DNA from: Trichuris trichiura
Taxonomy: Eukaryota; Nematoda; Enoplea; Trichinellida; Trichuridae
Assembly (NCBI GenBank): GCA_037903355.1
Contig: JBAJFE010000042.1
Span: forward strand, 2,740,001 to 2,804,000
DNA: 64,000 bases
Direction: 5' to 3'
Part shown: piece by piece, positions 11,901 through 29,232 of the stretch
Layout of the letters: each line of letters opens with the position of its first letter
Position numbering within the stretch: position 1 is the stretch's first letter
Notes under the pieces: model-generated
Told to the model about the DNA's origin: nothing
The model's database searches: none
Seen by the model: only the letters and a program-made list of their open reading frames with translations
Position numbers and translations under genes: made by a program

Positions 11901-12612
11901 AACAACAATTTTACGGCATTGTTCAAATGACCGCGTGAAGTAAATGTGTCGTAAACTAAAATGTGTGTGAATGGCATCGATTCTGAATCGATCTTGTACC
12001 ATCGTTAGCGTGCCGTCGTTACGTCATTCTGTAAGTCAATTTTTTCTTATCAATTGTCTTTCCGCGAATTTTCAAAAAATACAACCAGAAAGTTAATCCG
12101 ACGCTGTTCAGGCTTTGTCTCAGTTATTTGAATTCTTAATTCTTTGGAACACCCAATGAGTGAGCGCGTTTCGAATTGACGGTGTGTAGGAAAAAATTAT
12201 CAAAGTTTAAATTATCCGAGCTTTGTAGTTTAACAGAACCAAATCAGTTCTTCCACTCATCATTGTCATTTTTCCTTCTATGAATTGCTCTCAAGCAAAT
12301 GTACAAGCAGTTAGTCCATTAATTAAGAAACTGTTTAGTCAGCGGATTGTCGCAGCCTTTAGGCAACACCGTAGCAATTTAGTGGAGGAGTTATGGATCG
12401 TTGCTTGCACGGTGCCTAGAAAACGGAGTTTTCAAGCGGCCTATGAAAAAACTTTCCTTTCTTGTTGGCTATCTGAACTTTCCGATTAAGGTGGAAATAC
12501 TGGTGCGTTGCTGATATAATTGTCAGCTATGAGAAGAGAAGAAGATCCCCTCCTGCCGTCCAGTCTTGCAGTGTTCAGCGAAACTCTTTATCGCAGTGCA
12601 AGCAGTGTTATG

Positions 12613-12650
12613 GCGTAAATACTAAAAGCGTTATCTCGCAACTGTCATTC
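12613..12650 (+). promoter_or_regulatory. Degenerate TATA/initiator-like block, copy in unit 1
   Basis: GCGTAAATAC at 12613-12622 is followed about 27 nt later by ACTGTCATTCGTTCGC. The same arrangement recurs at 20265-20306 (a clean GGTATAAATA) and at 21655-21696. The TATA motif is weakened in this copy. It could drive a plus-strand transcript in each repeat unit, but no coding exon downstream was established. Confidence 0.3.
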
Positions 12651-13741
12651 GTTCGCTTGCAAAGCAGATTTGACTTAAATCTCTGTAAGTTCGAGGGGTT
12701 TTTCCAATGGTAAAATTGTTCCCTGATAAGAACGTGAGTAGATTTGCAAGATAAAAGTCTGCACAGGGTGCACTAGGCAGATCGGTAAAATGGTATGCTC
12801 TGTAGTGAGGTTGCGGTTTCAGTAAACCTACTTGTGTTGCGCAGAACAGTAGTATGCAAACTTGATACAACTTAATGAATATATGCAGTGTTATCGTCTG
12901 GAGAAGGGTAAGTGAAGATGATGTGAGTTTGTGCTTCATCACACGCGTATTTACTGAACATTGAAGCTCTTCCTTATAATTGAGCATCACTTGATGTCAG
13001 GAAATTAATTGCATTAGCGGCAGCTATTCATGCAGCGAAAATTTACCTTCTGATTGCTTTACGGAATTTTTCCTGCAGGTCGATGCTAAGCACTCTGACT
13101 AATCAAGCTTTACTAACGTCGGCATTCAATTTTCCCATATTGCCAATATGAGCACTAGGAAATCAATTTGCTCATTTCAGCTTAACAAAGAGTTCAAAAG
13201 TTTCGTTGCCATTCATGTTTGAAAGAATGGAAGCGCTGTCAGTCGATTAATAGAGACAAGGTAAGGTTGCGTTTCTTTTCTTCTTCTTCAATTATAAAAA
13301 TTCGGAATAAGCGCACATTAGTTGACAATTCACTGGTACAACCGGTAGTTCTATCACTGTATGGGAGATTCTGTACATTCGTAGGCAAACTCATCGTTAA
13401 ACATTTCATACGGAATCTTTGGAGTGACTTCTTGTTGGGAAGTATTACACACCGAAATAAAAGGAAATGCAAAAGAGATGCATGAGCATAATATGCATAA
13501 GATTATTCATTGGTAAAGGCTCACATTGAGCTTTATTCATTGAAGAATGTTTGTGTTGATGCCTAAAAAAGATGAGAGCCTACATGTTTGTTTTAACTAT
13601 GCCCTAATTCCAATTCCGGGAAACCTTTGCTGTCATTCTGATTAAGTGCCAAATCATTGTACACTTATCATAAAAGCCCATTTGCACTGTAAAGGTTCTT
13701 CCAAAACTTTATGTAAAAAAAGCAACTCCGGAAACTTTGGA

Positions 13742-14965
13742 TGGTAGCATTTCATTCATCCGAAAATGGTAGAGCAAAAGTTGCATAAAATTCCATGTTT
13801 TCAGTCAAGGAATTGCATTTAAAAAGTTGAAAATTTAGATTCCTGTTACGGGACAAATATTTTTGTCGCAGCAAATACGTCAAAGCAGCAGCCCAAGATA
13901 CGCAAAGGTTTTCTTGTTTTATTAACAAAAGCAGTTAACACTCATGTAAAAGCAACGTACATCATCTTGACAACATTGTAACAGCGCGAAGCGGACTAAT
14001 GTGAGATGATATTTATCTTGGCGAGATTGATTACTTGCGGTCAAATCTTTTTAGACTGTAACAACAGGTGACTAACTATGGAAAAGCCAAATATGTGACC
14101 TCTGGAAGGATTCTTTTGTTTTAACGAAATTCGTTACGCATAGTTTGAAGTGGGAACTAGTTTGACGCGACCAACTGATTTAAGGCGAGGGTTTGTAGAG
14201 ACATTTAAAATTAAACAACGTTTAGTTACTTCATCGTTGAAATAAGAATTGAAAGGATGAAGGAAAAAGGAACTTTCCTGGAACGGTTTACAGAATCAGG
14301 AGCGAATGTTCTGTCTGGTACATCGAGGAAATGGGCAACACGTTAGCAGTCACAGTTGCGGAAGTCCATCAATCAAAGGAGGATAGCAGAAGGTAGATTT
14401 AGTGGTAGAAGCAACGATCAAGCTCATGATCGTCCGCAATCGCGTGTACCTCAGGAATTTATGGAACAAGCTGACCAAGCTTCATGCAACACGCTACGCG
14501 TTATTCAGGCCATCTCTAAGCAAGTGTCTTCTGCAGTGGGTCACTTTATAATTAGCAAAATCAAACAGGTGCTGCGCATAAAGCACAAGTCAAATATCGA
14601 CAGGGACAACAATAGAGTAGAGGCGGACAGTTGGACAAAGATTATTAGTTCACTAAAACTATTACAACGTAAGGAGCCCCACCTGTTACTAGATATTGCC
14701 CTTAATTTTGTTTTGTGTTATTTCACCTTGCTTCTCTACACCTTAATTTTACACAAAAAGTCCATAAGGACTGGAAGGGATTGAAAACATTGCTACATGG
14801 GCCAGAGATTTTTCCCTGGGGCCAGCATGATTTCCTGCAGAAATTTTGTTGGCTTCTATGGTCTGTAAATACTTGCCCTTCCTAGTGGGTGGGTGTGTTG
14901 CAGGCTACATTGCTTTCCGGAGACCTTGGAATTTCAGCTGGAAAAGGCCTAAGAGGGGACCCTGA
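13742..14965 (+). other. 1.2-kb segment present only in duplication copy 1, with a 142-codon ORF
   Basis: Flanking sequence is continuous in unit 2 around 22795, so this stretch was either inserted in unit 1 or deleted from unit 2. It contains an open frame 14356-14784 (142 codons). The predicted product is basic in the first half and ends in a hydrophobic stretch (NFVLCYFTLLLYTLIL). I recognise no domain. No clear terminal repeats or target-site duplication were seen at the edges. The ORF may be fortuitous. Confidence 0.3.
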
Positions 14966-15508
14966 AATATTTTCACACACTGAAAGTAAGATTAAGTTCA
15001 AAGAGAAAACGGGGACCCTGAGTTTAAGAAGCACTCCTCTAGACGAATCTCTAAGGTTGAATTCAACATATACAATTCCTGAATGGCTCATTAAAGCGTT
15101 GAAAAATACAACAAAACCTAAGCACCCCCTTCTGCCTAATAACCACTTTGCAATTCGTTCCGAACAAACGTGGGCCAATAGAAACCACACGTATATGTGA
15201 TTATGGAATACATCATACCTTTATTATGGTTGTCAGCCATGCATCTCCAAAGAGTAAGATGTACCTGTGAAGTAAACAGTGCAGCCTTAGATTAACCAAG
15301 CTTTTATTGGAAAGCGCACATTTCTGCTACGTAGGAAAAAGGAAAAAGTCAGACAAGCTTTTATGATGCATGAACGACTAGGTTGAGCACCAGGCCAGCT
15401 AATTGTCAGAACGGAACGATGGACGTCACAACGTTTCCACGACTGTTAATTGCCACACTTGGAAAAACACCCCTTATCTCGCGAGCGTAATATATGCCAC
15501 ATAGGCAG

Positions 15509-15701
15509 GGGTTTTAAAGTGATAATTATACTGATAATTCTTTTTTGTGTCTATGGCTTGTTTCTCTCAAATCGTTGCTCACAGCACACCAATGCCCCAC
15601 TGTGGAATGTTGAACAGCGGTACGAACTAGGGACAAATGCTTATGATAATTGTACTGCAACTTTTAGACTTCGGAGCGGAAACACATTTTTGAAAAGATA
15701 A
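15509..15701 (+). CDS. Possible terminal exon of an unknown membrane/secreted protein, unit 1 copy
   Basis: A 193-bp stretch preceded by an AG acceptor (ATAGGCAG) is open to TAA and has an exactly equal-length partner at 23352-23544. It encodes a hydrophobic start (FKVIIILIILFCVYGLFL) then SNRCSQHTNA, WNVEQRYEL, NAYDNCTATF and LRSGNTFLKR. There are no indels between the copies inside this block, although a 1-bp indel occurs just upstream. No in-frame ATG is conserved, so it would need an upstream exon, which I did not find. No family recognised. It may be chance, but the frame conservation is notable. Confidence 0.25.
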
Positions 15702-17217
15702 GGGAAAGTCAATGAGTATCTATGAGTGGTAGGTATTGGCGCATTGACATTTAAAATGGCTATTTGCGGTTCCAATCCGTTTTCAAGAAAATTTCTGTTA
15801 CGAACTATTTCTTTCTTTCAACTTTCCGAAAGCTAAAACTGGCTCGATGAATTGATATTGCTCCCTTTAATGCTATTTGCATGTCTGCGGAAGGTTTTTT
15901 CCAGATTTACTAGAATTCGAGGAGCAATATTGGAATGGAACAAGCCCACTCCGGTTTTGCGGCGAGGGCAACGCAGACAACACAGTACATGAATTTACTC
16001 ACGACCATGCGTGTTTGCAGTCAGGTTTCTCAGTCTCACAAATCCTCAAAGCTTTGCTTTGTTGGGAAACCTTTTGTTCTTTTCCCGATATAGGTAGGTC
16101 TAAGTGAAAAGCATAACCTCGGCGGATAGACGATCAGACAAAGAGTAATTTTATAAACGCTAGCCATGATGCAACGTGGGTTTCGAAACTTCGTTATTAA
16201 TAAGCTCCTGTATAATGTCTCTTTTTCCTGACAGTTCACTACACAGTCGTCCACGTGCTCGTTTCTGAAGATTAGAGAAGCTGTCCTGATAGACTCAACC
16301 TTCACGAATTGGAAGCATAACTCTACATTTTAACGTAGAGTTGATTATTATATCGCATGTTTTTTATTAAATACTGTAGGCATTCAACAAAGTAGAAGTT
16401 AAAACGGCACTCATAACTGAGAACAAAAATTTAATCCCATCAGATAGGTGGGTATTGATGAGGTGCAGTGTCCTTGAATGTGATGAGATTGGGGCATTGT
16501 GAACACCCCCTTGTTTTGTGAATGATGCTTCTTTGTTTATCGCTGTTGAAAAACAACGGCTCAGCACCATACTTGAAGTGAACAAAAAATATTAGGCCAG
16601 AGCAAAAAATTTAGATAGTACTTTCTTCGAACGAAGCTTTGAGAAACGGAATTTCAGTAGGGTTAATGCAGTTCGGACCTACTATCCAGTAATGCTGAAA
16701 GGGAAAACACTGTTACAGAGAATTTCATTCAAATGAAGTTATTTCAACAGAGATGCAATTGTATGTTGTAACATGATACTATCCTTGAACAAACGGTGCT
16801 TCGTAACGAGATAAGGTTTCATGGTTTGGTAGATTTTCTACGGCTTTCCCCGTTTTTTGTCTGTGCTGGTAGCTGTAATTAAACGTAACAACCGCTCTAC
16901 TAACGGATGGATCAGCGACTATTAGGAAATTGTACAAAACCAACGCACTCAACTTTACTTCAGAGCTTTCTGAAAGCTCTAGTTCCGTCGTCAGTGACAT
17001 GGAAAAACATTCCATTCTTCCTTATTCAAATAACATTTATCCATCAGCGACGGTCATTGTGGCGAACTCAGCGACTTTTTATGTCAGAAAATCCAAGCTA
17101 GCAAGTTTTGGTATCTACTTTAGACCTCTCCGTTCATCCTCCTTACGCGGTAAGGTAGGTTCACTCTCAGTATTACGATGTTTCTAACGGTGCATATTTC
17201 ATGGTATAAAGCTAAAG

Positions 17218-17223
17218 TTTATT
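17218..17223 (-). terminator. Poly(A) signal of Kunitz gene copy 1
   Basis: AATAAA on the minus strand about 105 nt past the stop at 17327; the same signal is conserved in copy 2 at 27070-27075. Confidence 0.5.
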
Positions 17224-17326
17224 TGAAATGTACTGAGTCAAACACAATTGCGCAACTGCTCAACTTTGACTTGGACGGCCTAATAATCATTTGCAAAACA
17301 CTACAACGTTTCCTGTCAACATTAAC

Positions 17327-18392
17327 TCAACGTTTCTTGCCAACATTAACTCCTCTGTTGCATTTCTTATCGCACGCTGCTTTAGTTTCGAATCGGTTGG
17401 AGTTCCCTTCACATCCGCCATAGGTGAACGGTTCACATTTCTTGCCGTCTCGGTTGAAGTACCACATTTGGAAAGCGCCTCTACAAGGGCCAGCGTCCAT
17501 CTTCTGATTACACGTCAGCTCGTCGAGACAAACAGTTTCACATTGCTGCTTGCTATCGAAATTATTTGAATTACCGCCACATCCGCCGTAGTAGAATGTT
17601 TCACACTTTCGGGTTCGCGGATTGAAGAACCATTTCTGGTGCCTAGCCCGGCAGTTACCAACCTCTGCTGGCTGACCGCATATGCCAAATGACTTCAGCT
17701 CTCCAAACATTTTTCTTCACATTCTTGTTTGCTCTCGAAGTTGTTTGAGTTTCCTTTACAACCGCCGTAAATGAATTCCTTACACTTTCGATCGTCAAGG
17801 TCAAAGAACCATCTTGTATGACGTGCTCTGCAAGGGCCAGTATCACTTGGTTGCATACAATTGCCAGACGATGTCGATGGTTTTTGTTTTTTGACGCATT
17901 TCGCTTCGCATTCTTCTTTTGTAGCAAAATTGTTTTCATTTCCTTGGCATCCTCCGTAGATGAACAGCTGACAATCGTTCGTTTCTTCAGAATAGTACCA
18001 TCTATTTATTGCCGCCATACATGGACCAACGTCCAAGGGCTGTTTGCACGGATCCTTCTTTCCTTGCTTGACGCACAGTCTGTTGCAGGCTCTTTTCTTT
18101 TCAAATCTGTTCCCGTTGCCTTCGCAACCACCGTAAACGAACAGTGCACATTCCTTTAATGTAATGTTGTAATACCATTGGTGTTGTACTGCAAGGCACG
18201 GTCCGGCGTCTGGTTGAAGTTGGCATACCGATGAATCTTTGGTCTCACTTTCGATAACAACTGCAAGTATGATTAGTAACTTTCCAAGTTGAGTTTTTTC
18301 TTGCACTTACCAGGTTTTCGTCCTCCATTCACTGTTTCTAACGCGGCCACTGGTAGGAAGAAAAAGAGTGCATACAGAAGCTTCAATGCCAT
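17327..18392 (-). pseudogene. Multi-Kunitz secreted protease inhibitor, copy 1, frameshifted after domain 3
   Basis: Exon 1, 18311-18392, encodes a signal peptide (MALKLLYALFFFLPVAALE); exon 2 starts at 18260 after a TTGCAG acceptor. Domains in order: K1 (CLAV..., P1 Leu), K2 (P1 Met), K3 (P1 Arg), then K4 and K5 (both P1 Arg) in another frame. Compared with copy 2, one A is missing between 17701 and 17702 (plus-strand numbering). The frame therefore ends as CLES-stop at 17695, just after the last cysteine of K3. Translation as it stands gives a secreted protein of three complete Kunitz domains; K4 and K5 remain open (17327-17710) with all cysteines. So this is either a fresh pseudogene, a functional three-domain gene, or an assembly error. 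K2 differs strongly from copy 2. Kunitz domains block serine proteases by inserting the P1 residue; the target is unknown. Confidence 0.85.
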
Positions 18393-18416
18393 TGCTGTAA
18401 TGCAAATGGGAGAGTG

Positions 18417-18447
18417 ACTGATGCAATTTCCTCTCTTCTTTTATACC
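18417..18447 (-). promoter_or_regulatory. TATA box and initiator of Kunitz gene copy 1
   Basis: GGTATAAAAG at 18438-18447 on the minus strand is followed about 28 nt downstream by a TCAGT initiator at about 18417-18421, and the ATG lies about 26 nt further. The block is identical in copy 2. Confidence 0.6.
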
Positions 18448-19664
18448 ACCATTGAGTTGTCATTTCATGTCTGTACTCACGCTGCTGAACAGCTGATTCC
18501 ACTAGGAAAAGGTCAAAGATAGAGGATTAAGGGACGCGTAATTTTTCCTCTTCTTCTTGGCCGCTGCGCCACCAGTGTTTACCAAGCTTTCATCTTTTCA
18601 TTTTTAGCGCACATGGATTCGTTTTTGTGAGCGCTTTGCTGCATAATGCTAGTGAAAATGCTGACTGAATCGTATAGTAGTGGAATCATAATGGAAGGAC
18701 TGTTGTTTGTCTTTAGGTGACTGATTTAACTGTTACATTGCCTGGACACGTACTAGTCAGTGTTTTCGTTTGATAATTCGAGAAAACCTTATTCTGCCAC
18801 TGAAACGATATGTTGAAATCTTACGTTCACATCGCAATGCTATATTGTAATTTGCGCAGAATTTTGCGTATTACAGTGGGCGGCGGAAGGAACTATCTCA
18901 TGGGGGCAGAAACGATCTTGTTGTTGACGTGGAGGTTAAGACTGTTACGGATCAAGGTCAGGTACTTCTCTTTCAGATCAACCAAGCTTAAGACAATGTG
19001 CGCTAGCATGCACACTTTGCGTTATTTGTTGCCTAAAGCCTGTCCCTTGTGCAGTGCTTTAGAATTGTTTTCAGAAGAATAGAAGTTGCGCCGTTATCTC
19101 TCTACTCATCTCATTTATCGTCATGTACCCACGTCGTTAAGTTATTGGCACTGCAATGTTGAAGCACTTGCAGCTTTCATTGAATACTATTTAGAAAGAC
19201 AACATTCACGTTGTTCCTTCCCATATAGTCTAAGAAGTCCTTCGCGTCTGCTTATAAAGCTGCGACAGTCATTTCCAAAGACAGTGACCATCCTAGAATG
19301 GTTAAAAATATTGCTTTTCGTGAGAACAGCATCGGCCGTCGTGAGTGCGCGCGCTGTTCATGTGGTTTGCGAATAAGCTTTTGAATGAGAATAACGCGAA
19401 AAAAATGCTCTCTGACTCCACCGTTACCTACCGCTGATTTGCAGTTCAAGCAGGTCAGGGGGCGTTTTCTCTTACATGACTGCCATTGCGCGGCGCTGGT
19501 TTTTATACAATGCGTGACGATGTTGCGGTTAATTCAAATGACACCTGGAAATGAATGTTGCGTCATCCGCCTTGGAAATGTAAGATTCCTTGTAGTTCTC
19601 GTTAACTTGGCTAGTCCAAAGTTAGATGTTTTGTTCGAAATTAAAGTTAGGGTACTGCGGCTCA

Positions 19665-20800: not shown

Positions 20801-23351
20801 CCCATAAATTTAGTTTTCTCTTTCTGAACAAAGTGTCACTCGCTCCGTAAAACACTGCGGTAATAAGTGGCACTGACAGCGGAGCTTGGCTACCATAAAT
20901 GCTTGTAAGGTCACAATTGCTCTTCTTTCAATGGCCCTTCCTAATCATGTCGCTCAGTTAAGCCGCAACCGCAAGTTCCCACATTTTGCTACTTGTAATC
21001 AGTTTTGCTATTTCCTCGGAAGATCGCTTAACAAGCGACTTCTTCCTCAGGCCAAGTAGGACGACGGAAAGACGATGATCGAAAGAATATCAATTACCTT
21101 TCCGTGAATTTTCAAGAAATACAAGCAGGAAGTTAATCTGATGCTGTTCAGGCTTTGTCTTATTTACTTGAATTCTTAATTCTTTGGAACTCCCAATGAG
21201 TGAGCATGTTTCGAATTGACATTATGTACGACGTTATCAAAGTTTAAATTATCCGAGCTTCGTACTGTAACAGAACCAAATCAGTTCTTCCGCTCATCAT
21301 TGTCATTTTTCCTTCTATGAATTGCTCTCAAGCGAATTTACAAGCAGTTAGTCCATTAATTAAGAAACTGTTTAGTCAGCGGATTGTCGCAGCCTTTAGG
21401 CAACAACGTTCACCAGAGCGATTTAGTAGAGCAGTTAAAGAAGGTTGCTTGCATGGCGCCTTGAAGACAGAGTTTTCAAGCGGCGTATGAGAAGACTTTC
21501 CTTTTTTGTTGGCTGTCTACACTTTCTGACAAAGTTGGAAACCGCGTACTTTGCTGTTATAATTGTCAGCTATTAGAGGAGAAGAAGATCCCCTCCCACC
21601 GTTCGATCTTCCAGTCTTTAGCAAAGTTCGTTATCACAGGGATATTAGTGCTATAGGATAAGTACTAAAAGCGTCGTTTCGCAACTATCATTCGTTCGCT
21701 TGCAGAACGGGTTTGACTTGAATGTGTGGTAGTTCGAGCGGCTCGTAGAGCTAAAGCGATTCGCTGGTCTGAGCGTGAGTAGGTCTCTATGATAAAAGTC
21801 CGCACAGGACGCACTCGGCAGATTGGTAAAATGGCAAGTTCAGGAACGAGCTTGTGCTTTTAGTAAACCTGTTCGTGTTACGTAAAACAGGAGGATGCAA
21901 ATTGAATACGACTCAATAAACATATGCTGTGTTGTCATCTGGAGGAGAGTAAGTAGCGGTGCTTAAGTTTGTGCTTTTTCGGACGCGAATTTGCTAAACA
22001 TCAGAGTTCTTCTTTATAATTGAGCATCAATTGTTGTCAAAAATTTTGATGCACTAGTAGCAGCTATTCATGCAGGGAAAACTTTTCTTTTGATTGCTTT
22101 ACGGAATTCTGACGGCAGGTCGATGCTAAGCACTCTAGCGAATCAAGATTTACAAAGTTCGTTATTCAGTTTTGCAAACTGCCAATATCAGCGTCAGAAA
22201 ATCAATTTGCTCATTTCAGTTTAACGGAGAGTTCAAAAGTTTCATTGCCATTCATGTTTGAAACAATGGAAGAGATGCCAGTCGATTAATAGAGACAAGG
22301 TAAGGTTGCGTCTCATTTCTTCTTCTTCAACCATGACAATTCAGAATAAGCGTGCTTTAGTTGTCAGCTCACTGGTACTTCAGGTCATTCTACCAGTGTG
22401 GGGAGATAATTGTTTATTCTGTATATTCCGCAGGAGGACTCATCGTTAAACATTTAATATAGAATCTTTACATCAGCCTCTTTTTGTGAAGTATCACACT
22501 GAAATAAAAGGAGATGCAAAAAGAGTTGCGTGAGCACAATAGGCATAAGACTATCCATTCTTCATTGTTAAAAATTTATATTGGGCTTTATTCGTTGAAG
22601 ATTGTTTGTGTTGATGCCTAAAAAGGGTGAGAGCCACTATGCTTGTTTTAACCATTCCCTACTTCCAACTGCGGAAAACCTTTCCTGTGATTCTCATTAG
22701 GTGCCCAATCATTGTTATACACTTACGATAAGAGCCCATTTGCACCGTAAAAATTCTAGAACGTTGTGTAAGAAAAACGCCTCCGCAAACTTTGGAGGAC
22801 TGTGAAGTATTTTCAGATGGAGAATGTAGGATTAAGTTCAAAGAGGAGACAGAGACCCTGAGCTTGAGAAGCACTGCTCTAGACTCTGCTCTAAGGTCGA
22901 ATTCAACGTATACAATTCCTGAATGGCTCATTAATGCGTTGAGAAATACAATAAATCCTAAGCACCTCCTGCCTAATAACCACTCTGCAATTCCTTCCGA
23001 ATAAACGTGGGCCAGTAGAAACCACACGTATATGTGATTATGGAATACATCATACTTTTTATTATGGTAGCCAGCCCTGCATCTCCAAAGACCAAGATGT
23101 ACCTGTGAACTAAACAGTGCAATCTTAGATTAACCAAGCTTTTATTGGAAAGCGATCATTTCTGCTACGTAGGAAAAAGTGAAAAAATCAGACAATAAGC
23201 TTTTATGCTGCGTGAACAGCTGGGTTGAGCACCAGGCCAGCTAATTGTCAGAACAGGACGATGGACGTCACAATGTTTCCATGATTGTTAATTGCCACAC
23301 TTGGGGAAAGCAGCCGTTATCTCGCGAGCGTAGTATAAGCCACATAAGCAG

Positions 23352-23544
23352 GGATTTTAAAGTGATAATTATACTGATAATTCTTTACTGTGTCTATGGC
23401 TTGTTTCTCTCGAATCGTTGCTCACAGCACACCAATGCTTCACTGTGGAATGTTGAACAGCGGTACGAATTAAGAACAAATGCTTACGATAATTGTACTG
23501 CAACTTTTAAACTTCGGAGCGGAAACACATTTTTGAAAAGATAA
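23352..23544 (+). CDS. Possible terminal exon of an unknown membrane/secreted protein, unit 2 copy
   Basis: Equal-length partner of 15509-15701, with a conserved AG acceptor, hydrophobic segment (VIIILIILYCVYGLFL) and stop. Replacements include F to Y, P to S, G to R and R to K, alongside at least four silent changes. This pattern is compatible with weak purifying selection but too short to prove. No in-frame ATG. Confidence 0.25.
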
Positions 23545-24044
23545 GGGCAATTCAATAAATATGCATGGGTGGTAAGCATTAGGTCATTGACACCTAACAT
23601 GGTTGTTTGCGGTTCCAATCCGTTTTCAAGAAAATTTCTGTTACAAGCTATTTCTTGCTTTCAACTTTCCGAAAGCTAAAACTGGCTCGACGGATCGACA
23701 TTGGTTCCTTTAATGCTATTTGCATGTCTGCGGAAGGTTTTTCCCAGATTTACTAGAATTCGAGGAACAATAGTGGAATGGAACAAGCCCACTCCGGTTT
23801 TGCGGCGAGGGCAACTCAAACAACACAGTACGTGAATTTATTCACAACCATGCGTGTTTGCAATGAGGTTTCTCAGTCTCACAAATCCTCAAAACTTCGC
23901 TTTGTTGGAAAACCTTTTGTTCTTTTCACGATATAGGTAGGTCTAAGTGAAAAGCATAATCTCGGCAGATAGACGATCAGGCAAAGAGTAATTATATAAA
24001 AGCTGGCCATGATGCAATGCAGGTTTTGAAACTTCGTTATTAAT

Positions 24045-24349
24045 AAGCTCCTGTATATTGTTTCTTGGTGGGGGACCTTAGAGTTTCATTAGGCTGCTTC
24101 TTTTGCGAATTGTGAGTCCCGTTGAAAAATTTTAATACTGATTTTTCCAGAGCTTTCGGGCCAAACGCGACAGGTCTTTAGCGATCTTAAAATGATGTAA
24201 TGTCATAAAATGTCTTAATTACATCATTTTGAAAACCGCTGAAGACGGGTCGCGTTTGACCTGAAAGCTCCGGGAAAATTAGTATTAAAATTTTTCAACA
24301 GACTTACAATCCGTAAAAGAAGTAGCCTAATGAAGCTCCTGTATATTGT
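24045..24349. mobile_element. Foldback (long inverted repeat) element inserted in duplication copy 2
   Basis: Inverted arms of about 117 bp (24086-24202 and 24216-24332; ends CATTAGGCT and AGCCTAATG) pair almost throughout, with a short A/T-rich loop. The 17-bp sequence AAGCTCCTGTATATTGT occurs at 24045-24061 and again at 24333-24349. Copy 1 has the empty site once, at about 16200. About 24 bp (TTCTTGGTGG... to TTT) lie between the left direct repeat and the left arm. No coding capacity. The paralogous empty site proves insertion after the duplication. Confidence 0.85.
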
Positions 24350-26410
24350 CACTTTTTCTTGACAGTTCATTACCCAATCGCCCACGCGCTCATTTCTGAA
24401 GATTGGAGAAGCTGTCCTGATAGACTCGACCTCCACAAATATGAAGCCTAACTGTACATTTTAACGTAGAGTTGATTATTATATCGCATGTTTTATATTA
24501 AATATTGTAGGCATTCAAAAAAGTAGAATTCAAAACGGCACTCGTAACTGTGAACAAAAATTTAATCCCATCAGAGAGGTGGGTATTGATGAAGAGCACT
24601 GTCCGTAAATGTGGTGAGACTGGAGCATTCTAAACGACCCCTTGTTTTGCGGATGATACCTTTTTACTTAGCACCGTTGGGGAACAACGGCTCAACACCG
24701 TGCTTGAAAGGAACAAAACGTATTAAGCCTGCGCAAAAGGTTTAGATGGAACTTTCTTCGAACGAAACTTTGAGAAACAGAATTTCAGCAGAGTTAATAC
24801 AGTTCGGAAACAACTATCCAACACTGCTGAAAGGGAAAATGCTGTTACAAAGAATTTCATTGAAATGAAGTTATTTCAACGGAGATGCAGTTGTATGTTG
24901 TAACATGAAACCATTCTACATTGTAAAAAAACAGTCGAAGTGAAAATCCCTACTAAAGGTTCGGATCAGTGGATACATGCTCAGAAAGTGACCAAAGATG
25001 GCCCTCCGCCTGTTTCACGTCTTCATAACTTTTACCACTGGGAAGTACCTATAATAAAAATAGGATTTTACTGGGACGTGGAGATCAGTTTCATGTCTCC
25101 AGATGCTCTTCATAATGTAGTCACGTTGATGGTATTGATGGTAGAGAGTACCGTTTACTGAGTAAAAAGCTTTTTCAGAGACCTTTCAGAACTTCTATAG
25201 TTCAGTCTTTGTCGTACTCATGTTATAATGATTTTATTAATATTAATGATACGCAGCTGCAGTAAGCTGTCTGCGGAACAGGAGTAATTACACGAACATC
25301 GCGAAAGATCATTTCTCAACAAGCGGTAATCGCTTACTGTCAGTAATATCAACGTGATTAGGCTGCGAATGACATCTATAAACGTGGAAAACATCTATTT
25401 GAACGCGTTGGAAAAACTCATTGCCTTCACGGACAACCAATCACTCACAGAAAAGAAATAGAAAAGACTTTAACGTTTCATTTCTCTGCTTCTACTTTTC
25501 TTCATGGGCAGTAAAAGCATTCGTTTCTATACACACAAAACATACAACTCTATTGAAGTTTTATAGAGTTTGACTAAATCCGAAACCTCCGCTAGATTTG
25601 TGTGGTTTGCGAGCGTACAAAGTAGTAGCCTTTACCTCCTGCGAAGAAAAATAGAAAAAAATTGAAATTGAAGCGGACCTTTAAGAGTAACGTGTTCGAA
25701 GCTCAAAGCTACCAATAGGTTCGGCTTTGCCTTTGCTGTAATAATGAAATTCTGAATGACCATTTAGGAAAACCAGTGACTGACAGAATGAGAAAGATTC
25801 AAAGTTTCCTCTCTCTCTTTCTTCAGATGCCAATTTCGCATATAAAACAGACTAGGAGGATTACGTACTGTGTAGCAGCAATAAAGCAAGTTAAGGCAAA
25901 TGACTTTTTTGTGATCGGGTTAATTCTATCAATTGATAATCTTCATCCGACGTTAGCCGCCCTTTTTATTTCACTCTTTTCGACGAGATTTTAGTATAAT
26001 GTAGATTAAATAAGCGGAATTATGCGAAAAATCTGAAGCTGGTGAACTTTAGCCAATTATTTATACTTCTGTTATTTATTCTTCACATCCTGCTTATTTT
26101 TTTCTTTGCCGTTTTACCATTATTTTATCATCTTATTTCATTTTTATAATTTCTTTCTTCTTTTCGTTTTAACTGACCTTAGTTAACTTTGCCGAGTATG
26201 TTATCCTATTTATTTACGCTTGAGATCCATTTCATTTCGCTCGCATACTCGTCTTGAAGGCGTAAGTTTTTGGTTCCCGACATTGGACTTCGTGTGAAGT
26301 ATACGCTGTGATCGTTAAGGAATAAGGCTCGCTGTAGCATTTAAAAGTTTAATTCCCTAAGCATTCGTGTCTATCTTGACCCGTCATCAGCATAAAATAA
26401 ATGGAAACTT
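24350..26410. other. Non-coding part of duplication copy 2, partly unique
   Basis: To about 24910 it follows copy 1 (16250-16780). Beyond that about 1.9 kb has no counterpart in copy 1, including a pyrimidine-rich tract at 26080-26180. Open frames are below 80 codons and unrecognised. Confidence 0.5.
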
Positions 26411-27178
26411 GATACTTAGGTTGTAACAATTTAAAGTGAGCACTTTATGCTCAGGAGTCTAAGGTCTACAGCGGAGAGTCCAAAGTGAAAACGTGATGCT
26501 CAGGTTACAGCTATAGTTAATCGGCCAAGTCGCTTTTTTTCTTTCAGAGCAAAATGTCATTCTCCCCTTAGAACACTTAGATGAAGTCCCGTTGTGAAGA
26601 GAGACCAGTTATCCTAGTTCTTTTCAAAGTCATTGCTCTTTCGTGACTATTTCTAATAATCGCTTTCGGTTTATTTTTGGTATTCCTAAAACGTCCCATA
26701 GAATGCCAATTGCTGTCGGAACGCAAGAATCTACGGATTACTCGTTTCAGCTCTGTACTATCAATAGCGATTACATTTCACTGACAAGCGCGATTTAATG
26801 CGTTGCAAAAGACAACATCGAAGGCCGACCTCAAGCTTAATGAATTAGGCACTTAAGTCCGTCACCGTCCTTCTCATTCACATAACATTCACCAATCAAC
26901 TACGGTCAGTGCAGCAAACTCAGCGACTTTGTATGCCAGAAATTGCAAGCTCACAAATTTTGATATCTCATTTAGACCACTCTGTTCATCCTCCCTACGC
27001 AGTAAGGTAGCTCCACTCTCAGTATTACGATGTTTCTGATGGTGCATATTTCATGCCATAAAGTTAAGGTTTATTTGAAATGTACTGAGTCAAACATAAT
27101 TGCGAAACTGCTCAACTTTGACTTGGACGGCCTAATAATCATTTGCAAAACACTACAACGTTTCCTGTCAACATTAAC

Positions 27179-28245
27179 TCAACGTTTCCTGCGAACATTA
27201 ACTCCTCTGTTGCATTTCTTATCGCACGCTGCTTTAGTTTCGAATCGGTTGGAGTTCCCTTCACATCCGCCATAGGTGAACGGTTCACATTTCTTGCCGT
27301 CTCGGTTGAAGTACCACATTTGGAAAGCGCCTCTACAAGGGCCAGCGTCCATTTTCTGATTACACGTCAGCTCATCGAGACAAACAGTTTCACACTGCTG
27401 CTTGCTATCGAAATTATTTGAATTACCGCCACATCCGCCGTAGTAGAATGTTTCACACTTTCGGGTTCGCGGATTGAAGAACCATTTCTGGTGCCTAGCC
27501 CGGCAGTTACCAGCCTCTGCTGGCTGACCGCATATGCCAAATGACTTCAGCTCATCCAAACATTTTTCTTCACATTCTTGTTTGCTCTCGAAGTTGTTTG
27601 AGTTTCCTTCACAACCACCGTAAATGAATTCCTTACACTTTCGATCGTCAAGGTCAAAGAACCATCTTGTATGACGTGCTCTGCAAGGGCCGGTATCACT
27701 TGGTTGCATACAACTGCCAGACGGTGTCGATGGTTTTTGTTTTTTGACGCATTTTGCTTCGCATTCTTCTTTTGTCTCAAAATTGTTTTCATTTCCTTGG
27801 CATCCTCCGTAAGTGAACTGCTGACATTCGTTCGTTTCTTGAACATAGTACCATCTATTTACTGCCGCCATACATGGACCAGCGTCCATGGGCTGTTTGC
27901 ACGGATCCTTCTTTCCCTGCTTAATGCACAATTTCCTGCATTCTTTCTTCTTTTGAAATCTGTTCCCGTTGCCTTCGCAACCACCGTAAACGAACAGTGC
28001 ACATTCCTTTAATGTAATGTTGTAATACCATTGGTGTTGTACTGCAAGGCACGGTCCGGCGTCTGGTTGAAGTTGGCATACCGATGAATCTTTGGTCTCA
28101 CTTTCGATAACAACTGCAAGTATGATTAGTGACTTTGCAAGTTGAGTTTTTTCTTGCACTTACCAGGTTTTCGTCCTCCGTTCACTGTTTCTAACGCGGC
28201 CACTGGTAGGAAGAAAAAGAGTGCATACAGAAGTTTCAATGCCAT
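27179..28245 (-). CDS. Secreted five-domain Kunitz-type serine protease inhibitor, copy 2 (intact)
   Basis: Exon 1 (28164-28245) encodes the signal peptide MALKLLYALFFFLPVAALE; a 50-bp intron follows; exon 2 (27179-28113) encodes the rest, total about 338 aa. Five Kunitz domains each show the six cysteines, the YGGC core and an FxxxxxC end. Residues at P1 (directly after the second cysteine) are Leu, Met, Arg, Arg and Arg, so K3-K5 suggest trypsin-like targets and K1-K2 chymotrypsin/elastase-like or divergent targets. K4 has Asn where Pro is usual before the second cysteine. The start was chosen because the signal exon, its splice donor and the TATA/initiator are conserved with copy 1; the ATG-like codon just inside exon 2 would lack a signal. 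A basic tail (RRKR) ends the protein. Likely secreted by the worm; whether it acts on host or self proteases is inference. Confidence 0.93.
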
Positions 28246-28265
28246 TGCTGTAATGCAAATGGGAG

Positions 28266-28300
28266 AGTGACTGATGCAATTTCCTCTCTTCTTTTATACC
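28266..28300 (-). promoter_or_regulatory. TATA box and initiator of Kunitz gene copy 2
   Basis: GGTATAAAAG at 28291-28300 and a TCAGT initiator at about 28270-28274 (minus strand), 25-30 nt apart and about 25 nt before the ATG at 28245. Same as copy 1. Such a focused core promoter suits a strongly or stage-specifically expressed gene. Confidence 0.6.
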
Positions 28301-29232
28301 ACCATTGAGTTGTCATTTCATGTCTGTATTTACGCTGCTGAACAGCTGATTCCACTAAGAAAAAGGTCAAAGATAGAGGATTAAGGGAGGCGTGATTTTT
28401 TATCTTCTTTGCTACTGCGTTAGCAGTGTTTACCAAGCTTTTATCTCTTTAGTTTTAGCGCACATGGATTCGTTTTTGTAAGCTCTTTGCTGCATAATGC
28501 TAATGAAAATGCTGACTGAATCATATAGCAGTAAAATCATAATGGAAGGACTGTTGTTTGTCCTTAGGTGACTGATTTAAGTATCACATTGCCTGGGCAC
28601 GTACTAGTCAGTGTTTTCGTTTGATAATTCGAGAAAGCCTTATTCTGTCACTGAAACGATATTTTGGGATCTTCAGTTAGCATCGCAGTGCCATGTTGAA
28701 ATTTACGTAGCGCAGAATTTGTTGTATTGCAGTGGGCAACGGAATGAACAATTTCAAGGGGGTGGAAACAACCTCATTGTTGTTGACGTGGAGGTGACGA
28801 TTGTCACGGAGAAAGGTCTGGAGCTTCTCTTCTGAACGAACCAAGCCTGTGACAACGAGAGCTACCGTGTATACTTGGTGTCCTTTGTTCTCCCTAGTCC
28901 GTCTGCTGCGCAGTGCTGTGGAATTGTTTTAGAAAGAATAGAACTTTGGAGTTACTTCTCTGTTCACTTCTTTTATTACTATGTCCGCGCGTCGTCAGAT
29001 TAGTGGTTCTGCAAGGTGAAACGATTCTCAGGTTTCATTGGACAGTCTTTAGAACGACAACTTTCAAGTTTTTCCTTCCAAAGATTTCTAACGAATCCTT
29101 CATGCCTGATTATAGTTGGCAACTGTGTCTTCCAAAGATAGTGATCACTCTAGAGCAATTAAAAGTGTTGCTTTTCATTAGAGTAGTGTCGGTGGTAGTG
29201 ACTGCGCACTGCTATTCAGTTGGTTTGAGCAG

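What the first reader, a model, noticed from the sequence alone, without database searches (positions are those of the whole stretch)
17880..18110. Divergence between the two Kunitz paralogs is concentrated in one domain and is mostly replacing
By hand alignment, the segment covering the end of domain 1 and all of domain 2 differs at about 25 of 215 bases between the copies and gives about 15 amino-acid changes. The next 540 bp (domains 3-5) differ at only about 11 bases, and domain 1 plus the signal peptide are nearly identical. Changes in domain 2 include positions equivalent to BPTI 11, 18 and 34, which contact the target protease. Either diversifying selection retunes this inhibitor, or gene conversion has homogenised the rest of the gene and spared this part.
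Basis: partly seen in the sequence, partly recalled or inferred. Interest (0 to 1): 0.75.

Follow-up and report, generated by a model that had tools for sequence, protein, structure and literature searches.

The report
Gene-conversion mosaic in whipworm Kunitz paralogs
Two neighbouring protease-inhibitor genes of a whipworm look alike except in one domain, most likely because most of the gene has been copied from one neighbour to another and this stretch was left unequal; the data do not show that evolution is retuning the inhibitor.

Summary
In detail: copies c1 and c2 differ at 25 of 231 bases in 17880-18110, 10 of the next 540, and 4 of 283 before it. Domain-2 positions 11, 18 and 34 differ; P1 (Met15) does not. 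"Mostly replacing" misleads: in the tract (18102-17860) 20 of 198 nonsynonymous and 7 of 45 synonymous sites differ. On five paralogs w is 0.54 (tract) and 0.37 (domain 2), both below 1; the c1-c2 pair alone is indistinguishable from 1. The anomaly is the rest of the gene: far flanks of this tandem duplication are 18-28% diverged, gene-body silent sites about 4%. At the end of domain 1, c2 and a third copy (c3) group with contig-25 paralogs and c1 with others. In 13 of 17 tract residue differences both states occur in other paralogs. Best explanation: ectopic gene conversion homogenised c1, c2 and c3 and left a patchwork of older variants. An ordinary process, well supported; assembly mixing is not excluded.

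The parts
18311..18392 (-). c1 exon 1: signal peptide
   Evidence: Read by eye from the sequence: ATG at 18392, GT donor at 18310; 2 differences from c2, both silent by my reading
18261..18310 (-). c1 intron, 50 bp (GTAAGT...TTGCAG); 2 differences from c2
17695..18260 (-). c1 exon 2, open frame with Kunitz domains 1-3, ends in a stop just after domain 3
   Evidence: ORF 17695-18306; Pfam PF00014, 3 stretches
17860..18102 (-). Divergent tract: end of domain 1, linker, domain 2, linker; 27 of 243 bases and 17 residues differ from c2
17896..18048 (-). c1 domain 2 (Cys5-Cys55), P1 Met; 9 residues differ from c2
18103..18541 (-). Homogenised 5' block (near upstream flank, exon 1, intron, most of domain 1): about 2% c1-c2 difference
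   Evidence: summed over its 60-column rows
17237..17859 (-). Homogenised 3' block (domains 3-5, near 3' flank): about 2% c1-c2; c1-c3 have a run 17725-17253 without a mismatch at 35 polymorphic sites
17330..17716 (-). c1 domains 4-5, open frame of 129 codons in a different frame from domains 1-3
27179..28245 (-). c2: intact gene, signal peptide exon (28164-28245), intron (28114-28163), five Kunitz domains
   Evidence: exon limits by alignment offset 9853
27713..27955 (-). Equivalent tract in c2
   Evidence: alignment offset 9853
12048..19369 (.). Left unit of the old tandem segmental duplication that carries c1 (blocks 12048-13741, 14957-16223, 16198-16776, 17017-19369; 80-90% identical to the right unit)
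21088..29227 (.). Right unit that carries c2 (blocks 21088-22796, 22797-24066, 24328-24908, 26870-29227)

Best explanation
The pair belongs to an old tandem duplication of a secreted five-domain Kunitz inhibitor gene in a whipworm (Trichuris). Repeated ectopic gene conversion among c1, c2 and c3 (possibly also with copies on other contigs) has overwritten the near upstream flank, signal exon, intron, most of domain 1 and domains 3-5. The 243-bp stretch from the end of domain 1 through domain 2 was not, or not last, overwritten. It keeps variants that are older than those conversions and are found in other paralogs, so it looks like a hot spot of replacement. Shown: homogenised silent sites, an abrupt border at 18102, discordant genealogy at the end of domain 1 and of the tract, shared residues. 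Inferred: that the events were conversions rather than repeated crossover; their direction and number; exchange with other contigs; and that domain 2, the least constrained domain, changes faster because of weak constraint.
For: (1) c1-c2 difference is 27.5% in the far 5' flank and 17.9% in the far 3' flank, but about 4% at silent sites of the gene body outside the tract (9 of ~203, my sum, tested) and 7 of 45 at synonymous sites of the tract. (2) Order reversal: c2-cX is closer than c1-c2 in the far 5' flank (13.5 against 27.5%) yet more distant in domain 1 (7.5 against 0%) and domains 3-5 (5.8 against 1.7%). (3) Of five trees tried, the tract prefers (c2,c3),(c1,cX),La by 16 to 32 lnL, while in domain 1 c1, c2 and c3 are identical and a c1-c2-c3 grouping is better by 15. 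Holding c1, c2, c3 together is rejected for 18102-17881 (p 0.025) and for the end of domain 1 (p 0.005). (4) Own GENECONV-like runs test, four copies with flanks: c1-c3 17725-17253 p_global under 1e-4 (also 0.0002 in the other two sets); c2-c3 18282-18064 p 0.0009; c1-c2 18475-18386 p 0.027; coding part only: c2-cX 17959-17861 p 0.0013. (5) Both residues occur in other paralogs for 13 of 17 tract differences; the end of domain 1 in c1 is nearest to C25b and C2a, in c2 to Lb (7 of 54 differences each, against 12 between c1 and c2). (6) A second pair, C2a/C2b, 555 kb apart, shows 0 differences over 1.35 kb around the D1-D2 part and 0.7-5% beyond.
Against: For domain 2 alone, holding c1, c2, c3 together is not rejected (p 0.21), and in domains 3-5 a c1+cX grouping is not rejected (p 0.12); the codon-model preference for c1-c2-c3 in domains 3, 4 and 5 is weak (all margins under 5 lnL; domain 4 at most 1.2). 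The c1-c2 run over domain 1 does not pass globally in any set (p 0.065, 0.16, 0.48; 0.11 with ten sequences), the c2-c3 run fails with five sequences (0.44), the c2-cX run fails with five (0.17) and ten (0.92), and the c2-Lb run at the end of domain 1 has p_global 0.27. w is higher in the tract than in the other domains, and M2a is nominally better for the tract (p 0.028). Tract and segment borders were chosen from the data. Reads were not available, so assembly mixing of near-identical copies is not excluded.
Confidence: 0.8

Rival explanations
1. Diversifying selection on domain 2 changes its target protease, and the rest of the gene is held by purifying selection.
For: Pairwise ML w for domain 2 is 1.16 (c1-c2) and 1.13 (c2-cX); M2a against M1a p 0.028 for the tract; domain 2 differs most among six sequences, five paralogs and T. 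suis P0001 (mean 10.7 residues against 5.5-7.7 in the other domains); a T. suis pair (P0001, P0123) differs at P1 and positions 17-19 of domain 2.
Against: w 0.37 for domain 2 and 0.54 for the tract on five paralogs, both below 1 (2dlnL 8.05 and 5.24); none of four branch groupings above 1; synonymous differences rise as well; 3 of 9 domain-2 changes are at contact positions (p 0.45) and P1 is unchanged; contact positions are not clearly more variable than others in domain 2 (p 0.16), though they are in domains 4 and 5; purifying selection on the protein does not explain low intron and synonymous divergence.
Confidence: 0.1
2. Assembly or polishing artefact: reads of near-identical copies were mixed, which homogenised c1, c2, c3 or made a false mosaic and a false frame break in c1.
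For: c1 has a single-base frame break in a stretch otherwise identical to c3; C2a/C2b identical over 1.35 kb; no reads held.
Against: Flanks and tract are resolved as different; the homogenised blocks include near flanks and intron; each copy has its own private sites; the tract conflict also involves cX on another contig. None of this excludes it.
Confidence: 0.07
3. No exchange: differences in constraint alone (relaxed domain 2, strong constraint elsewhere).
For: w is lower in domains 1, 3, 4 and 5 (0.16-0.29) than in domain 2 (0.37) and the tract (0.54).
Against: Silent sites and intron are homogenised too (about 4% against 27.5% in the far 5' flank, p 2e-14) and the tract genealogy is discordant.
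Confidence: 0.03

Closest known systems
Interlocus (ectopic) gene conversion in Caenorhabditis paralogs (review PMC3966223: abstract, and part 1 of 2 of its section 4)
   Same: Patchy homogenisation of tandem and dispersed paralogs, tracts of tens to hundreds of bases, introns sometimes included
   Different: Here in a Trichuris Kunitz family; homogenised blocks are about 440 and 620 bp and leave a 243-bp island
Hessian fly SSSGP genes (PMC2955719, abstract and outline)
   Same: Clustered secreted-protein genes with conserved promoter, UTRs, signal peptide and intron, and a diversified coding part
   Different: There strong positive selection on the mature protein is reported; here w in the divergent part is not above 1 and most of the mature protein is homogenised too
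Multi-domain Kunitz proteins of Trichuris, e.g. T. trichiura 'Serine protease inhibitor 2' (P0011) and T. suis P0001
   Same: Same domain order where present; c2 differs from P0011 at 2 of about 135 residues from the end of domain 3 on and is 82% identical to P0001 over 93%
   Different: P0011 as deposited starts at the last cysteine of domain 1 and lacks the end of domain 2 and most of domain 3; P0001 has Glu at P1 of domain 2
Carboxypeptidase inhibitor SmCI (PDB 4bd9) and boophilin (2ody): closest solved chains to c1 domain 2
   Same: Kunitz domain, six cysteines aligned
   Different: P1 residues differ; comparison by sequence only, so no function can be carried over

Membership tests
Kunitz/BPTI domain (PF00014) | Six-cysteine pattern and profile score over the curated cut-off | tested here: met
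   3 domains in the c1 upstream frame (206.7 bits), 2 in the other frame (134.3), 5 in c2 (328); cut-off 21
Kunitz/BPTI domain (PF00014) | Inhibits a serine protease through P1 at position 15 | not testable with these tools
   P1 of domain 2 is Met in c1, c2, c3, cX and C49; no assay
Gene-conversion mosaic | Silent sites homogenised inside, not outside | tested here: met
Gene-conversion mosaic | Genealogy differs between segments | tested here: met
   clear for domain 1 against the end of domain 1 and the tract; not for domain 2 taken alone (p 0.21), weak for domains 3-5
Gene-conversion mosaic | Long matching runs beyond column shuffles | tested here: met
   the c1-c3 run over domains 3-5 passes globally in all three sets; c2-c3, c1-c2 (upstream), c2-cX, c3-cX (flank), c1-La (flank) and C25b against c1, c2 and c3 pass in one set each; the c1-c2 run over domain 1 passes in none
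Gene-conversion mosaic | Not made by assembly | not testable with these tools
   No reads
Diversifying selection on domain 2 | dN/dS above 1 | tested here: not met
   0.37 (domain 2), 0.54 (tract), both below 1; pairwise c1-c2 indistinguishable from 1
Diversifying selection on domain 2 | Changes concentrated at protease-contact positions | tested here: not met
   3 of 9, expected 2.4; contact list recalled, from no call
Diversifying selection on domain 2 | A class of sites with w above 1 | tested here: inconclusive
   M2a p 0.028 (tract, w2 4.5 at 15% of codons), 0.10 (domain 2); recombination inflates this test

The most novel reading that the evidence does not exclude
The end of domain 1 and domain 2 act as an exchangeable variable cassette: conversion keeps the scaffold (signal, domains 3-5) uniform while older types of the domain-1 end (A: c1, cX, C49 and kin; B: c2, c3, La, Lb) and of domain 2 are shuffled among copies, so that the worm secretes one inhibitor with several second domains. 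c1, whose open frame now ends after domain 3, would be a short form that carries its own cassette.
Probability: 0.15. Interest if true: 0.55.

Novelty: new member of a known kind. Interest (0 to 1): 0.3.

Why it matters
It shows how an apparent hot spot of adaptive change can be an island that gene conversion left alone, and it warns that selection scans on parasite Kunitz families need recombination-aware tests. With at least 150 scored Kunitz matches in this genome (of 237 candidates) the family is a practical place to measure ectopic conversion in whipworms; none of the 8 papers listed for 'gene conversion' with 'Trichuris' has a title on that (listing only).

Tried and rejected
IQ-TREE codon runs gave trees, but no w could be read from their output; my own codon-likelihood code was used instead. 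A search of the genome for a donor of the c1 tract found none closer than cX (91%), then c2 and c3 (89%) and C49 (82%), so a recent import into c1 from a copy in this assembly is unlikely. I tried to polarise the A and B types of the domain-1 end and could not: T. suis proteins P0001 and P0123 carry B-like forms, but the C49/C25b/C2a/C51 paralogs carry A. I considered that c1 is a dead gene and its tract therefore drifts: w on the c1 branch is 0.47 (tract) and 0.39 (domain 2), separable neither from 1 nor from the background, so this is open. Species: protein hits put the genome in Trichuris, nearest T. trichiura and T. suis; I looked for assembly figures of T. incognita in PMC11682790 and found none, so no species is claimed. 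Papers on conversion in Trichuris Kunitz genes: the listings of 'Trichuris + Kunitz' (25 of 60 shown), 'gene conversion + Kunitz' (15 of 26) and 'gene conversion + Trichuris' (8 of 8) show no title or abstract start on it; these were seen as listings only. A further listing on conversion in tandem duplicates (12 of 29 shown) gave the two papers PMC3966223 and PMC2955719.

Full report
What is there. The window lies in a 72.7-Mb genome of 62 contigs. The best protein hits of c2 include T. suis P0001 (82% identity over 93%) and T. trichiura P0011 (87% over 54%), so this is a whipworm. c1 (17330-18392, minus strand) and c2 (27179-28245, minus strand) are Kunitz genes with a signal-peptide exon, a 50-bp intron and one large exon (exon limits by my reading). 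c2 encodes five Kunitz domains. They sit in a tandem segmental duplication whose blocks are 80-90% identical. A third copy, c3, lies on the same contig 39.7 kb to the right of c2 (L009). A fourth, cX, is on contig C1 (L010). La and the broken Lb are on C25 (L011). Related copies that match only in the signal, domain-1 and domain-2 part are C49, C25b, C2a, C2b and C51.

Observation. The clustering exceeds all 20,000 permutations. The natural borders are 18102 and 17860: 27 of 243 bases, 17 residues. Of these residues 5 are in domain 1 (positions 46-53), 1 in the next linker, 9 in domain 2 and 2 in the linker after it.

In c1 a one-base difference in length about 17701 shifts the frame, so the open frame ends just after domain 3 and domains 4-5 lie in another frame. 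c2, c3, cX and La are open through all five domains. Whether c1 makes a three-domain protein, is decaying, or carries an assembly error cannot be told here.

Selection. NG86 counts for c1-c2 in the tract: 20 nonsynonymous in 197.8 sites, 7 synonymous in 45.2 (w 0.63); domain 2 alone 10.5 and 2.5 (w 0.90); domains 3-5: 4 and 5 (w 0.19); first 49 codons: none. Pairwise ML: tract 0.90 (interval 0.4-2.5 on a grid), domain 2 1.16 (0.3-6); over the five pairs tried the tract runs 0.63-0.97, domain 2 0.50-1.16, domains 3-5 0.21-0.34. On five paralogs (c1, c2, c3, cX, La): domain-1 part 0.20, tract 0.54, domain 2 0.37, domain 3 0.29, domain 4 0.16, domain 5 0.18; each is below 1 by likelihood ratio at 5%, the tract with 2dlnL 5.24, domain 2 with 8.05. 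None of four branch groupings has w above 1. A site class with w above 1 improves the tract nominally (p 0.028) but not domain 2 (p 0.10); mosaic sequences inflate such tests. So domain 2 is the least constrained domain, but positive selection is not shown.

Contact positions. By cysteine numbering the domain-2 changes are at 9, 11, 18, 24, 25, 29, 32, 34 and 46. With twelve contact positions (recalled, from no call: 11, 13, 15-19, 34-37, 39) three are hit, 2.4 expected. Among eight sequences (six from this genome, two from T. suis) domain 2 is not clearly more variable at contact than at other positions (p 0.16), whereas domains 4 and 5 are, in six sequences (p 0.001 and 0.008; domains 1 and 3 give 0.15 and 0.08) (sequences are related and five domains were tested, so these are indications only).

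Conversion. Distances by region for c1-c2: far 5' flank 161 of 586, near 5' flank 29 of 384, exon 1 to exon 2 start 4 of 145, domain 1 part 0 of 147, tract 27 of 243, domains 3-5 9 of 530, near 3' flank 8 of 150, far 3' flank 29 of 162. For c2-cX the same regions read 80 of 592, 67 of 383, 12 of 145, 11 of 147, 24 of 243, 30 of 516, 21 of 150 and 19 of 162. c1 is thus the odd one out in the far flank and nearly identical to c2 in the gene. Silent sites of the c1-c2 gene body outside the tract total 9 of about 203, a sum I made by hand (5 of 132.9 in exon 2; 2 in exon 1 with about 20 sites by estimate and 2 of 50 in the intron), against 7 of 45 in the tract (p 0.013) and 161 of 586 in the far 5' flank (p 2e-14); the tract does not differ from the far flank (p 0.11). 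Constraint on the protein cannot produce this.

Genealogy. Of five trees tried, the tract prefers (c2,c3),(c1,cX),La by 16 lnL or more; domain 1 prefers c1, c2, c3 together by 15; domains 3, 4 and 5 do so only weakly, by less than 5. With ten paralogs the end of domain 1 splits c2, c3, La and Lb from c1, cX, C49, C25b, C2a and C51 (support 99/98), and a c1-c2-c3 clade is rejected (p 0.005); for 18102-17881 p is 0.025; for domain 2 alone 0.21, so domain 2 by itself does not decide. In domains 3-5 c1, c2, c3 group with support 80/84, and a c1+cX clade is not rejected (p 0.12). Of 17 tract differences, c1's residue occurs in another of seven paralogs in 14, c2's in 16, both in 13. Most are therefore variants seen elsewhere in the family, not new ones. 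Runs tests are given in the evidence fields with their failures. C2a and C2b, 555 kb apart, are identical over 1.35 kb that holds the domain 1-2 part and differ by 0.7-5% beyond, an independent case of the same pattern in this family.

Mechanism. Shown: homogenised silent sites, segment-wise conflict, shared variants. Inferred: ectopic gene conversion among tandem copies, the latest between c1 and c3 over domains 3-5 (no mismatch at 35 polymorphic sites from 17725 to 17253; the length difference in c1 is not counted there). In Caenorhabditis, surviving tracts aggregate towards 50-200 bases, some run longer, and there is some evidence that introns are included (PMC3966223, section 4 part 1), which fits. 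The tract stayed different either because divergence there blocks pairing, because conversion across it was lost by chance, or because keeping different second domains is useful; the last is the novel case and is not needed by the data.

Known or new. Concerted evolution that spares a part is known; the Hessian fly SSSGP genes (PMC2955719, abstract) are a close parallel but with reported positive selection. [quoted passage not shown] T. suis has 45 predicted secreted Kunitz-type entries (PMC3160910, passages), so a large family is expected.

Noticed in passing
window 17701: c1 frame break after domain 3 although domains 4-5 are open in another frame and match c3 at every aligned base; short-form protein, decaying gene or assembly error.
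   Followed up: partly
L016, L017, L018, L019 (contigs C25, C2, C2, C51): In four members of the sister group the second Kunitz domain has lost both Cys14 (Gly) and Cys38 (Ser), i.e. a whole disulfide of the binding loop.
   Followed up: partly
L017 424-1773 against L018: Two copies 555 kb apart on one contig are identical over 1.35 kb; they differ by about 3-5% on one side and 0.7-3% on the other.
   Followed up: yes
L011 4797-5735 (+): Lb: a broken, inverted neighbour of La with five in-frame stops, yet residues 46-55 of its domain 1 are those of c2.
   Followed up: partly
paralog set, domains 4 and 5: Protease-contact positions vary more than others in domains 4 and 5 across six sequences, unlike domain 2; a better place to look for retuning.
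   Followed up: partly
T. suis P0001 and P0123: Two T. suis proteins differ at P1 (Glu/Met) and at 17-19 of domain 2.
   Followed up: no
window 24081-24338: A palindromic inverted repeat of about 260 bp (83%) lies in the right duplication unit between two blocks that are contiguous in the left unit; it could be an inserted mobile element (inference).
   Followed up: no
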